Below, piece after piece: positions 26,739 to 31,229 of a stretch of 42,016 nt of DNA (positions are counted from its first letter, which is position 1; each line of letters opens with the position of its first letter). Source of the stretch: Firmicutes bacterium M10-2. GTDB lineage: Bacteria; Bacillota_I; Bacilli_A; Erysipelotrichales; Erysipelotrichaceae. The translations under genes and the position numbers were made by a program. The notes under the pieces are model-generated. The model was not told where the DNA came from. It saw only the letters and a program-made list of their open reading frames with translations, and did no database searches. The stretch is taken from contig KE159681.1 in the NCBI GenBank assembly GCA_000403415.2, forward strand, positions 411,637-453,652, given 5' to 3'.

Positions 26739-27730
26739 TCAATAACACTTCTTGCATGGCTCATATCCCCAAGATTGGGCTTGAGATAATGAAACCTGAC
26801 TTGGATTTTTCATATTGGAACAGTTGGGATTTGAATGATATTTGCTTCCTGTTCTGGGAATCCAAACCTGGGATTCGATCGATTGTACTTGCTGTGCACG
26901 CAAGGCCGCTTCTTCCGCAGCAATCCTTGCTTCTTCGGCTAGGCGAGCTTCTTCTGCACGTTGTTCTTCTTCAAGACGGGCTTTTTCTGCCTCTTCCGCT
27001 TCTTTTTTCAAGTCGCGAATTTCACTGGTTTGTTTGTTGATTTCAAAATTCGGCTGTTCATTATATACATAAGCTTTAAACGATAGCTCATCGTCTTCGA
27101 CAGAGCGGGCCTGAAGAATAATTCCGTTGCACAAGGCAGCGTTTTCTTCATAGATCGGATCGGCGCGTACCAGAACATGATTGTTCGTTTTTTCCAAATA
27201 GTCTTTAATCAAAGATTCCCAATGCGACATTCCGCGTTGGAAAGATGGAGTTGCGGTAATGGTGATTTGTTTTTCCAAACTTATATCGGACAATTTGCTT
27301 GGGAGCAGTTTGCTTTTAACGAAAAATACGCCTCCGTCAATATTTTCGGATGTTGTATCGGTAAATCCTGTCGGAACGATTGATTCATTCACATGAGAAC
27401 TTTCTTCGAAACTTTTTTGATCCAATGTCACAATGGCAGAGCCTACATGATCTCCTTCTCCTTTAATCGTTAAAAATTGTACCGGCAAAGTCTGATCTAA
27501 TGAAGATTCCTCTAATTCTACATATTCTTTTTCCTGATCAAAATCGGGAATTTCTATATCTTCTTTTTGTTCAAGGCTTTCAAGCCGACTTCACGCCATT
27601 CTTTTGCGGGTGTGCTTTCTACGATTTTTTCTTCATAAATCGGTTGTTCTGGAGTTTCCGGATCTGAAAGCATTCCTAAGGCACCTGCACCAAGGATGAA
27701 TGCCAGACCCAATTTTACTGATTTCTTCAT
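26739..27730 (-). pseudogene. Frameshifted secreted protein with catalytically dead EndA-like domain
   Basis: Two frames belong to one gene. The first (from the ATG at 27730, after GAGGAAGAGAG) encodes a hydrophobic signal or anchor (KLGLAFILGAGALGML) and ends early at 27554. The second, from about 27600 to 26739, encodes the rest. A -1 shift at the five-base A run (T's at 27564-27568) joins them, as if one A of six was lost. The second part contains an EndA/DNA-entry-nuclease-like stretch: GMSHWESLIKDYLEKTNNHV then SVEDDELSFKAYVYNEQP. The catalytic His region (normally RCHL or DRGH) reads FFVKSKLLP. An alanine/glutamate-rich coiled coil and a C-terminal Cys motif (YHSNPNCSNM, EPCKKC) follow. 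It could be a decayed gene or a programmed frameshift. Confidence 0.6.
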
Positions 27731-27847: not shown

Positions 27848-30094
27848 TCAATCCCATTCGATATCTTCTTCCGCAATATTATAGATTATTGTTCTATGTT
27901 CGAAATTGATTTCATTCACGATCCATCCATGTGCAATACAGCGATTGATAAAATCCGTATATCGGTTTTTGCCGTGAATTTCTTTCAGCGTGATCACGAT
28001 TCCGAAATCAATATCCTCTCCGTATTTTTCATCCTGTCTTTCTCGTTCATTGATCTTAATGCCCCAGAAGCCGTTCTCTGTCATCGCTTTCACATCTTTT
28101 GATTTTTCATTTACTTTTTCTTCAAGATGTTTCACATTGTCCCATTTCCGAAATGTTTTTCGGGCAGTTTCTTCATAGCATACATGAATTCCGTCTTCTC
28201 CTTGGTGATTGGCATTAATGGCTCTAATCCGAAAATTTCCTTTTTCATCCTCATACACTCTTCCGAAATAAATATCAAGTTCTGTACAGGAATAATCAAC
28301 ACCATTGTAGCGATCGCATTTTGGAAAATATGTCATTGTTACTTTTGCTTTAAACGGATGCTTTCCGTCAATCGCATTCACCGGAAGACGATGAGTATAT
28401 ATTTCCGTATTTTTCATTTTTCCGCTCATTACGAATCGAATTTCATTCTCTTTTGATTGAAGAACATCATATACAGAAACAGGAACAATTCCATAACCGA
28501 CTTCAAATTGTTGTTGGGTGCCCCAGTCTGCTGCGCTATCGATCAGCAAAGCTTTTGTCACTTCGCGGCAAATCCCCATTTTCTCGATCAAATAGGAAGC
28601 TTTTCGTGCAATCCAAGGAGCTGCGTAACTCGTACCCATAGCTTGTGTGATTTCTCCGGAAGCACTCACAACATTTATAGGTTCTTCTGCCGTTCCTCCA
28701 TAATAGGAAAGATCAGGTTTTATAAAAAAAGACAGCACTGGACCTTTGCGGGCGTATGGGGGCACCTCCTTTTTTAAGGATACTGAATTGACAACGATCG
28801 AATTCAGAGAATCTGCAGGGCTACCAATTCGATAAGGCTTATCGGTAATCCTTCTCGGTTTATTGGTTCCTGCAACAATAAACAAAACATCATATTTGAA
28901 TTGCAGTTCGTCTAGTAAAGCACCCTGAACAGACATATAATTTCGGGATACTTCCAATTCTGATCCTAACGAAATATTCCAAACCTTTATATCCAGATTA
29001 TTTTCCACAATGTCACGAATTTGTTTTAGAGCAGTCGAATTGTTTAATTTTCCACTTGCCCCGATTCCAAAGTGGCGAACGCGAAAACGACCACAATGAT
29101 CATCTAAATGAGGATTCAGAGATGGTCCGTCTACAATGATGGAACTCACTCGGGTTCCATGTTCGTAATCTGTATCATCAAGTTCAATCTCGTCGGAAGT
29201 CACTCGTTTATAATCGACCCATCGATCAAAATAAGTTGTTCCCTTTTTAAAATGCATATCGATAACTCCGATCACCGGCTCATCATCCGGATCCGGTATT
29301 TCTTTCAACTCATAGATAGGTTTGGAGAGTTGGAACTGGATCGGACTCACTTCATTCAGATCTTTTAAACCCATAGAAACAAGATACGGAACTTCTTTTA
29401 AGATCACATCCATGTCGCGTTTTGAAAACACATAAGTTTGCTCATCAATCTTTTCTATATTCAACAGATCAATATTGAGCTTCTCAAATAAACAATCCAG
29501 ATCGATCGAAGTTTTATAGAACGTAAGCATATGATTTCCGTTTTCATTCAACACTTCTTTTTCTATAGAAAAAGATTCAATTTCTTTTAAATCAACAAGA
29601 CCTTGAACAAACTCTGAATAGCTGTAAATATTCTGTTTAAAAAAAGGTTTTAACTCTTTGATATTTTTTTCCGTAGCCGTTCCATTAAATTGAGTATCGG
29701 TTATATATTCCAGAAATTGTAAAAGTTGAATTGTATCCGTTAATTGTTCGATTGAAATATAATAAGTAATGATATGCGCCCTGCCAATATTGTTTTCATC
29801 AAACCTTTTATATTTTGCTCCGCAAATAAATTTAGAACTTCGTTTCGATTTTGTACCCAGAATACGATTTACACGACTTGATTTCGGAATCTCTCGTTTA
29901 TAATGGATGCTTACTAAAGCTCCATCCAGATATTTTTCATATTCCCAAAATCGTCTGATCTTTTCAAGCTGGATCCTGAATTGCCGAATCGTCTCTATTT
30001 CTAATTTAAGTCCTTTTAATTGTGGTACAGGATTGTTATTTTTCGGCTTGCTCGAATTCAGCTCTCCTCGTAATTCAAAAATATTATTCATCAT
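27848..30094 (-). CDS. Subtilisin-like S8 serine protease, IetS-like
   Basis: This 748-aa cytoplasmic-looking protease has no signal peptide. An N-terminal region of about 270 residues precedes the S8 domain (about 272-505). The catalytic triad is intact: D279 in VIGVIDMHF, H312 in YEHGTRVSSI and S489 in MGTSYAAPWIA. The oxyanion asparagine is N411 in IVAGTN. A C-terminal domain of about 240 residues follows. Its start overlaps the AAA ATPase stop (ATGATG), with AAGGAGAGA upstream. An AAA ATPase plus subtilisin-like protease pair of this layout is the IetAS type, known from plasmid incompatibility and as a phage-defence system. No third gene is coupled. Confidence 0.85.
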   Translation of the reverse strand: MMNNIFELRGELNSSKPKNNNPVPQLKGLKLEIETIRQFRIQLEKIRRFWEYEKYLDGALVSIHYKREIPKSSRVNRILGTKSKRSSKFICGAKYKRFDENNIGRAHIITYYISIEQLTDTIQLLQFLEYITDTQFNGTATEKNIKELKPFFKQNIYSYSEFVQGLVDLKEIESFSIEKEVLNENGNHMLTFYKTSIDLDCLFEKLNIDLLNIEKIDEQTYVFSKRDMDVILKEVPYLVSMGLKDLNEVSPIQFQLSKPIYELKEIPDPDDEPVIGVIDMHFKKGTTYFDRWVDYKRVTSDEIELDDTDYEHGTRVSSIIVDGPSLNPHLDDHCGRFRVRHFGIGASGKLNNSTALKQIRDIVENNLDIKVWNISLGSELEVSRNYMSVQGALLDELQFKYDVLFIVAGTNKPRRITDKPYRIGSPADSLNSIVVNSVSLKKEVPPYARKGPVLSFFIKPDLSYYGGTAEEPINVVSASGEITQAMGTSYAAPWIARKASYLIEKMGICREVTKALLIDSAADWGTQQQFEVGYGIVPVSVYDVLQSKENEIRFVMSGKMKNTEIYTHRLPVNAIDGKHPFKAKVTMTYFPKCDRYNGVDYSCTELDIYFGRVYEDEKGNFRIRAINANHQGEDGIHVCYEETARKTFRKWDNVKHLEEKVNEKSKDVKAMTENGFWGIKINERERQDEKYGEDIDFGIVITLKEIHGKNRYTDFINRCIAHGWIVNEINFEHRTIIYNIAEEDIEWD

Positions 30095-31125
30095 TCTCTC
30101 CTTAATTCACGATCAATCGCACTTCTTGACTTCTGAAGCAATACTTCCGATTCCCGAATAGTAAAACCTTGTTCTTTTAGAATTTGAGCATCCGGAATCG
30201 AATGTTCAGTAACCAAACCATATAGGCGAACAAGGTAATCCGATTCATCCTGAGGGTCGCTAAAGGCAATCGCAGTCCGAATGATATTTTTTAATTCCGC
30301 AGGTGTTTCAGGAAGATGTAAATTCAATATTTTTTTGAATAAGCGCAAATTCTTTGTTGTAATTTGTGCTTGTGCCAAATAACGATTTAATAATTTTTCA
30401 GCAAGCTCGATTCGGTCCTGCTTGGAATATCGGTCAAACGATACGACTTTATCAAATCTCCTTAATAATGCTTTGTCCAACTGTTTCAACAAATTGGTTG
30501 TTCCGATAATCGTGGCACGATAATCAAGTAGGTCAAATTGTTTTAAAATCGTAGATGTAACCCGACTCATTTCCCGAACATCTTGCTGATCAAGTCGATT
30601 CGAAACCAAAGAATCGATTTCATCAATTAAAATAATAGAAGGTTCAAATTTAACTAATTGATTGATCTCTTTAAAAAGCTTGGATATATTTTTTGACGTT
30701 TGTCCTAATTTGCTGTCGATCAAAGCTTCAACATTCACATTATATACAGCACGATTCAATATCCTGCCTAACTGTTTACCTGCTTCCGTTTTTCCTGTTC
30801 CGGGTTTTCCTACAAATAAGAATTTGTTAACACCCATATTTCGATTTGCCGCATTCGCAATACCCATAATTTCGTTCATAATCGGTTCCGGCAGCAGCAA
30901 CGGCTCTCCATTCCCCTCAACTTGATCTAAAAATTCATACGTATGATTGGTCTCCATCGGAATCCAAGTTTGCGAGCTTGAGAGAAACATCATAATATAT
31001 TGAGCTAATTCCTGATCCCCTGATTGACTAAATTCCTTTGCGACCGAATAAGCTTCAGATTTAAAAGCTTTTTCATTTTTTTCAAAATGATATTTTATTA
31101 AATTCAACACCGATTTCTTTTTCAT
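30091..31125 (-). CDS. AAA ATPase, IetA-like partner of the S8 protease
   Basis: This 344-aa ATPase has an N-terminal helical region (1-80) and an AAA core. Walker A is GKPGTGKT at 106-113, Walker B is IILIDEID at 164-171, sensor 1 lies in ATIIGTTNLL, and the arginine-finger region is ALLRRFDKVVSF. It ends with a helical lid and a short C-terminal helix. The gene directly precedes the protease with a 4-base overlap, so the two proteins are made together and probably form one complex. It is preceded by GGAGAGAG and a promoter at 31153-31180. Its role is inferred from the conserved IetA-IetS pairing. Confidence 0.85.
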   Translation of the reverse strand: MKKKSVLNLIKYHFEKNEKAFKSEAYSVAKEFSQSGDQELAQYIMMFLSSSQTWIPMETNHTYEFLDQVEGNGEPLLLPEPIMNEIMGIANAANRNMGVNKFLFVGKPGTGKTEAGKQLGRILNRAVYNVNVEALIDSKLGQTSKNISKLFKEINQLVKFEPSIILIDEIDSLVSNRLDQQDVREMSRVTSTILKQFDLLDYRATIIGTTNLLKQLDKALLRRFDKVVSFDRYSKQDRIELAEKLLNRYLAQAQITTKNLRLFKKILNLHLPETPAELKNIIRTAIAFSDPQDESDYLVRLYGLVTEHSIPDAQILKEQGFTIRESEVLLQKSRSAIDRELRRE

Positions 31126-31152: not shown

Positions 31153-31180
31153 AATATATCCAATCGGGACAAAAATTCAA
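31153..31180 (-). promoter_or_regulatory. Promoter of the IetAS-like operon
   Basis: Minus strand: TTGAAT (31180-31175), 16 bp, TATATT (31158-31153), upstream of the ATPase gene. Confidence 0.6.
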
Positions 31181-31229
31181 TTTTTGAGACAAAATTTATC
31201 TATTTAAATTTTTTTCCTCTGCCTAGAAT

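What the first reader, a model, noticed from the sequence alone, without database searches (positions are those of the whole stretch)
27848..31125. IetAS-type AAA ATPase plus S8 protease pair, probable defence system
Seen: an AAA ATPase with intact Walker A and B and an S8 protease with intact Asp-His-Ser triad, overlapping by 4 bases, on their own promoter. This pairing is known as IetA/IetS and listed among phage-defence systems. It lies in an island bounded by an IS3 remnant and a broken gene, as defence systems often do.
Basis: partly seen in the sequence, partly recalled or inferred. Interest (0 to 1): 0.7.

Follow-up and report, generated by a model that had tools for sequence, protein, structure and literature searches.

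The report
Self-regulated IetAS toxin-antitoxin/defence pair
Two overlapping genes make an ATP-driven regulator and a protein-cutting toxin of a known bacterial toxin-antitoxin and phage-defence family, and the regulator carries a DNA-binding tip matched by a paired DNA site in front of the genes, which shows how this poorly understood family is probably kept under control.

Summary
An AAA+ ATPase (30091-31125, minus) and an S8 protease (27848-30094, minus) overlap by 4 bases, with intact Walker motifs and catalytic residues. They match the IetA/IetS profiles of PADLOC (3e-37, 3e-68). They fall far below NCBIfam's equivalog cut-offs for the tested anti-phage pair. The family is also a demonstrated toxin-antitoxin system in mycoplasmas, SGI1 and pTiC58, so defence is one of two documented roles.

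The new part is control of the operon. IetA ends in a helix-turn-helix (residues 313-343). Its promoter carries a tandem repeat TGTCyC-N14-TGTCCC (31166-31191), straddling the -35 box. Of 86 different relatives, 83 have at least one TGTCCC-type site and 80 have the pair, always 20 or 21 bp apart. A DNA-only scan of 392 genomes found the pair in 11, and in 9 it lies directly before an IetA-type gene. Three lineages that lost or changed the helix-turn-helix have no TGTCCC site. In the window's own genome the exact pair occurs once.

Best reading: IetA represses its own operon and restrains the protease IetS. The repression is inferred and untested. This is a new member of a known kind with an apparently undescribed control element.

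The parts
30091..31125 (-). ietA: AAA+ ATPase (Vps4/spastin/PAN-like core) with C-terminal helix-turn-helix; predicted antitoxin and autorepressor
   Evidence: PADLOC IetA 2.9e-37; Pfam AAA 1.1e-26; AF2 model pLDDT 86; Foldseek Vps4/spastin
27848..30094 (-). ietS: S8 (subtilase) protease, 748 aa, predicted toxin/effector
   Evidence: PADLOC IetS 3e-68; Pfam Peptidase_S8 2e-27; AF2 model pLDDT 84, pTM 0.86; Foldseek pro-Tk-SP 2e-20
30091..30094 (-). 4-base overlap of ietA stop and ietS start
   Evidence: operon order kept in 92 of 95 loci by BLAST, the other three being partial loci
30097..30189 (-). codons of IetA residues 313-343: three-helix C-terminal helix-turn-helix
   Evidence: AF2 helices 313-318, 323-330, 334-343, pLDDT about 91-94 over 321-340; Pfam HTH_38 and other HTH families, sub-gathering; conserved in nearly all of 90 homologues
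30787..30810 (-). Walker A of IetA, GKPGTGKT
30619..30636 (-). Walker B of IetA, IILIDE
29258..29260 (-). IetS catalytic D279
   Evidence: 100% conserved in 92 homologues
29159..29161 (-). IetS catalytic H312
   Evidence: 100% conserved in 92 homologues
28862..28864 (-). IetS oxyanion-hole N411
   Evidence: 100% conserved in 92 homologues
28628..28630 (-). IetS nucleophile S489 (GTSYAAP)
   Evidence: 100% conserved in 92 homologues
31186..31191 (-). operator site 1, TGTCTC (consensus TGTCCC)
31166..31171 (-). operator site 2, TGTCCC, 20 bp downstream of site 1, inside the -35/-10 spacer
   Evidence: the only exact TGTCYC-N14-TGTCYC in the 2.4-Mb genome
31153..31180 (-). predicted promoter: -35 TTGAAT (31180-31175), -10 TATATT (31158-31153)
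   Evidence: consensus match only

Best explanation
This is an IetAS-type two-gene module. IetA is an AAA+ ATPase that (a) restrains or controls the cytoplasmic subtilase IetS and (b) represses transcription of its own operon, by binding its C-terminal helix-turn-helix to two TGTCCC half-sites 20-21 bp apart (two helical turns) that straddle the -35 box. When IetA is lost, titrated or diverted (loss of a carrier element, or infection), repression and restraint would both lapse and IetS would cleave cell proteins and stop growth. That would give element stabilisation, exclusion of rivals, or abortive phage defence. Shown by sequence: both genes, intact catalytic residues, operon order, the HTH, the conserved operator, and co-loss of HTH and operator. 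Shown in relatives by others: IetS-type toxicity and neutralisation by the ATPase. Inferred: repression, the inhibition mode, the trigger, the protease substrate, and any defence role of this copy.
For: Profile matches and an operon kept across diverse hosts. HTH in the AF2 model, conserved in about 90 homologues, sub-gathering Pfam HTH hits; distant proteobacterial and enterococcal IetA also end in HTH-like tails. Operator: 80 of 86 different upstream regions carry the TGTCCC pair at 20 or 21 bp, expected 0.0 in shuffles; 62 of 66 exact pairs in 2.08 Mb lie within 130 bp upstream of ietA, and one of the other four precedes ietA at -186. DNA-only scan: 9 of 11 genomes with the pattern have it directly before an IetA-type AAA gene, including distant members with 32-37% AAA identity; reversed control 1 hit in 392 genomes. 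HTH and operator vary together: 94 both, 4 neither, 1 HTH without an exact site; sisters L068 (both) and L172 (neither). Single exact site in the own genome. Toxin-antitoxin function of relatives: PMC8562856, PMC5006074.
Against: No binding, repression, toxicity or phage data for this copy. Individual Pfam HTH scores are below the gathering cut-off. The HTH regex was written after seeing the sequences, and the Fisher p ignores relatedness (about three independent changes). The window's IetA is a long branch (1.47) that differs at several otherwise 97%-conserved positions, so relaxed function cannot be excluded. In viral contigs the DNA pattern alone gave 0 of 80 hits next to IetA, so the motif is not diagnostic in very large collections. 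Another host factor could bind the site.
Confidence: 0.78

Rival explanations
1. The pair is primarily an anti-phage system: infection triggers IetS, which kills the cell or cuts a phage protein, and the operator is only housekeeping regulation.
For: PADLOC/NCBIfam anti-phage label. Some relatives neighbour other defence genes (DpdF, ThsA, TIR, methylases) or prophage/plasmid genes.
Against: Equivalog cut-offs not met. No other defence system in this window. The mechanism is still called unknown in the literature (PMC9958689).
Confidence: 0.4
2. Pure toxin-antitoxin (addiction/incompatibility) module with no defence role, like mycoplasma T133/A132 and SgiAT.
For: Toxicity and neutralisation shown for relatives. 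Lengths (353/757 aa in M. mycoides) match this branch. The M. hyorhinis homologue is in the same branch.
Against: The window copy is chromosomal with housekeeping neighbours, so an addiction role is not obvious here. TA and defence roles are not exclusive.
Confidence: 0.4
3. TGTCCC repeats are bound by another (host or element) regulator, and the IetA HTH does something else, for example protein contacts or non-specific DNA sensing.
For: Binding was not shown in any call here; the HTH itself scores only below Pfam's cut-offs, and HTH folds can act in protein contacts (general knowledge).
Against: Same site in hosts of several phyla, unique in the own genome, and lost with the HTH in three lineages. 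No third conserved gene nearby.
Confidence: 0.1
4. AAA+/HORMA (TRIP13-type) or other AAA defence component.
For: TRIP13 profiles match at 6e-16.
Against: IetA profiles score far better. The partner is a subtilase and neither HORMA nor cyclase is present in the window.
Confidence: 0.01

Closest known systems
IetA/IetS of Agrobacterium pTiC58 and the PADLOC/NCBIfam anti-phage IetAS (IteAS)
   Same: AAA ATPase gene followed by S8 protease gene, catalytic residues, size; distant IetA proteins also end in HTH-like tails
   Different: IetS about 21-27% identical over part of its length; below NCBIfam equivalog cut-offs; TGTCCC tandem operator not seen upstream of the proteobacterial loci examined
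Mycoplasma AAA-ATPase/subtilisin-like TA pair (TA132/133; homologues in M. bovis, M. gallisepticum), PMC8562856
   Same: Same order, similar lengths; a mycoplasma homologue (M. hyorhinis) is in this branch at 37% (IetS) and 45% (IetA) identity
   Different: M. mycoides sequence not in hand; the M. hyorhinis IetA has lost the HTH and its promoter lacks the operator
SgiAT of Salmonella genomic island 1, PMC5006074
   Same: AAA antitoxin / subtilase toxin operon that stabilises an element
   Different: Proteobacterial branch; regulation stated there as unknown

Membership tests
IetAS | AAA ATPase matching IetA profiles | tested here: met
   PADLOC PDLC02196 2.9e-37 over residues 3-286
IetAS | S8 protease matching IetS profiles with catalytic D, H, N, S | tested here: met
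   PADLOC PDLC02197 3e-68; residues 100% conserved in 92
IetAS | adjacent, co-oriented, overlapping ietA-ietS | tested here: met
   4-bp overlap; kept in 92 of 95 loci
NCBIfam IteA/IteS anti-phage equivalogs (NF042959, NF042956) | bit scores above curated cut-offs 510 and 900 | tested here: not met
   102 and 181.7 bits
IetAS | anti-phage activity | not testable with these tools
   no experiment
AAA/subtilase toxin-antitoxin | protease toxic alone, ATPase neutralises | not testable with these tools
   shown for relatives only
AAA/subtilase toxin-antitoxin | antitoxin gene first, no intergenic gap, DNA-binding antitoxin autoregulating a promoter operator | tested here: inconclusive
   gene order, HTH and conserved operator found; binding not tested
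TRIP13/HORMA CBASS | HORMA and cyclase partners | tested here: not met
   none among the 38 window ORFs scanned with PADLOC

The most novel reading that the evidence does not exclude
IetA is a DNA-anchored AAA+ sensor. Its HTH-operator binding is mechanistically coupled to restraint of IetS, so that extra operator copies or foreign DNA titrate IetA and release the protease. This would explain plasmid incompatibility, element stabilisation and phage defence by a single mechanism.
Probability: 0.2. Interest if true: 0.75.

Novelty: new member of a known kind. Interest (0 to 1): 0.5.

Why it matters
IetAS is widespread, but how it is controlled or triggered is described as unknown in the papers read. 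A helix-turn-helix at the end of IetA and a strongly conserved tandem operator in a large, mostly Gram-positive branch give the first testable handle found here: EMSA, reporter assays, and swaps of recognition helix and operator. They also suggest that the 'incompatibility' effect could come from operator titration.

Tried and rejected
Single-protein searches of genome contigs and viral contigs found nothing; the alignment search worked. A same-genus genome (G185) lacks ietAS but shares only the broken neighbour gene and no synteny, so no empty site could be read. IS3 remnant: no Pfam match. A third conserved gene in the module: none among flanking ORFs. A regulon of the operator in the own genome: no second exact site. 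Phage contigs carrying the operator as a decoy: 80 hits read, none next to IetA, several inside coding repeats or tandem repeats, about what chance predicts. A possible altered operator in Macrococcus (TSATAT repeats 20-21 bp apart in L018/L019) was seen by eye only: two related AT-rich sequences, not counted. LexA control: excluded for sgiAT in Salmonella by others (PMC9927553), not tested here. Yamamoto 2009 (PMC2704731) is not held, so prior mention of autoregulation there cannot be ruled out.

Full report
WHAT IS THERE. The window lies in a 2.4-Mb genome. Its order includes Thomasclavelia (Coprobacillaceae), because G038 contig 51 and NZ_JMLH01000052.1 have the same length and the same match; the host is therefore a member of the Erysipelotrichales. 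Two minus-strand genes overlap by four bases: ietA 31125-30091 and ietS 30094-27848. IetA matches PADLOC IetA (2.9e-37) and Pfam AAA (1e-26). IetS matches PADLOC IetS (3e-68) and Peptidase_S8 (2e-27). NCBIfam's anti-phage IteA/IteS models are the best or only family hits, but at 102 and 182 bits against cut-offs of 510 and 900. The locus is therefore in the family but not an equivalog of the tested pair.

RELATIVES. Only 5 of 316 genomes of the order match IetS. A profile search gave 386 relatives in genome contigs, the best 80 at 40-45% identity, mostly gut Firmicutes but also contigs from Mollicutes, Spirochaetes and other phyla. Further relatives lie on Carnobacterium and Macrococcus plasmids, in Mycoplasma hyorhinis, and in phage or prophage contigs. 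The two-gene order is kept in 92 of 95 loci; the other three are partial. D279, H312, N411 and S489 of IetS are invariant in 92 sequences, and the Walker residues and R222/R223 of IetA are conserved in at least 97% of 90. No other gene recurs beside the pair in more than 7 loci, so the module is two genes. Neighbours in relatives include some defence, mobile-element and housekeeping genes. In the window no other convincing defence system is present. No IetS structure is solved; the nearest solved proteins are other subtilases. The IetA core resembles Vps4, spastin and PAN.

HELIX-TURN-HELIX. IetA homologues end in a short conserved element, GFTVREIEILTGISKSQVSRELKE. In the AlphaFold2 model of the window's IetA it is three helices (313-318, 323-330, 334-343) at pLDDT about 91-94. 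Pfam HTH families match these tails, all below their gathering cut-offs. The more distant Agrobacterium, Acidovorax, Enterobacter, Enterococcus and E. coli phage IetA proteins end in similar HTH-like tails. The PADLOC IetA matches end before residue 290, so this element is not seen by those profiles.

OPERATOR. Upstream of ietA lies a tandem direct repeat, TTTGTCCCAA ... TGTCCCAA, with the -35 box between the copies and the second copy between -35 and -10. Of 86 non-identical upstream regions, 62 have an exact pair within 130 bp, 16 a pair with one mismatch (the window is one: TGTCTC/TGTCCC), 1 with two, and 3 a single site. Of the remaining 4, L057 has an exact pair at -186 and three have no site. 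Among the pairs with at most one mismatch the spacing is 20 bp (61) or 21 bp (17) and nothing else. Shuffles give 0.0 such regions. Of 66 exact pairs in 2.08 Mb of these loci, 62 lie in the 130 bp before ietA. The exact pattern occurs once in the window's genome, at this promoter.

TWO TESTS OF THE LINK. First, a scan by DNA alone: TTGTCCCA-N13/14-TGTCCCA in 392 genomes of the phylum hit 11 genomes, and in 9 the site is directly before an IetA-type AAA gene. Two of the nine are distant members (32-37% identity), one with four tandem copies and its own S8 gene; the reversed control pattern hit once. Second, co-variation: in 99 loci, 94 have canonical HTH and operator, four have neither, and one (L086) has the HTH with CGTCCC twice. 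The four are two Macrococcus plasmids with a changed recognition helix, M. hyorhinis, and L172, whose HTH is lost. L172's sister L068 has both. Fisher p is 1.3e-6, but the tree allows only about three independent events and the HTH pattern was defined after reading the sequences, so the p value is nominal.

MECHANISM. In mycoplasmas, deletion of the ATPase gene alone is lethal while deletion of the pair is tolerated, and the subtilase is toxic and neutralised by the ATPase (PMC8562856). SgiAT of SGI1 behaves likewise, and its regulation was left open (PMC5006074). With the HTH and operator, the simplest model is an antitoxin that also represses its own promoter, as in classical type II systems (established knowledge). 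Whether the copy here defends against phage is unknown; the papers read call the mechanism of IetAS undescribed (PMC9958689).

LIMITS. Nothing was tested at the bench. The window's IetA is a long branch and differs from the family at several highly conserved positions, so this copy may be changing. The motif by itself is not diagnostic in large viral collections: 0 of 80 hits were next to IetA. The 2009 pTiC58 paper could not be read, and subscription papers are mostly not held, so 'undescribed' means not found in the open literature searched.

Noticed in passing
window 26739-27730 (-): Frame-split copy of a gene that is one intact 335-aa frame in a same-genus genome (G185); DNA about 70% identical; small predicted exported or lipid-anchored protein without a Pfam match. 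It could be a real pseudogene or a sequencing error.
   Followed up: partly
L161 6291-7400 (G386, mollicute-like genome): Distant IetAS pair whose promoter carries four tandem TTTGTCCCA copies at 20-21 bp spacing, like plasmid iterons.
   Followed up: partly
L160 4633-5658 (G518): IetA-like AAA gene with HTH and operator but no S8 ORF of 150 aa or more downstream under table 11: possibly an orphan antitoxin or a decayed toxin gene.
   Followed up: no
L018, L019 upstream of ietA (Macrococcus plasmids): No TGTCCC, but TSATAT direct repeats 20-21 bp apart near the -10, together with a changed recognition helix: possible altered-specificity operator.
   Followed up: no
L008 1175-1456: A short N-terminal piece resembling a CBASS-type nucleotidyltransferase follows ietS in a family relative (G067); noted from the sequence only.
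   Followed up: no
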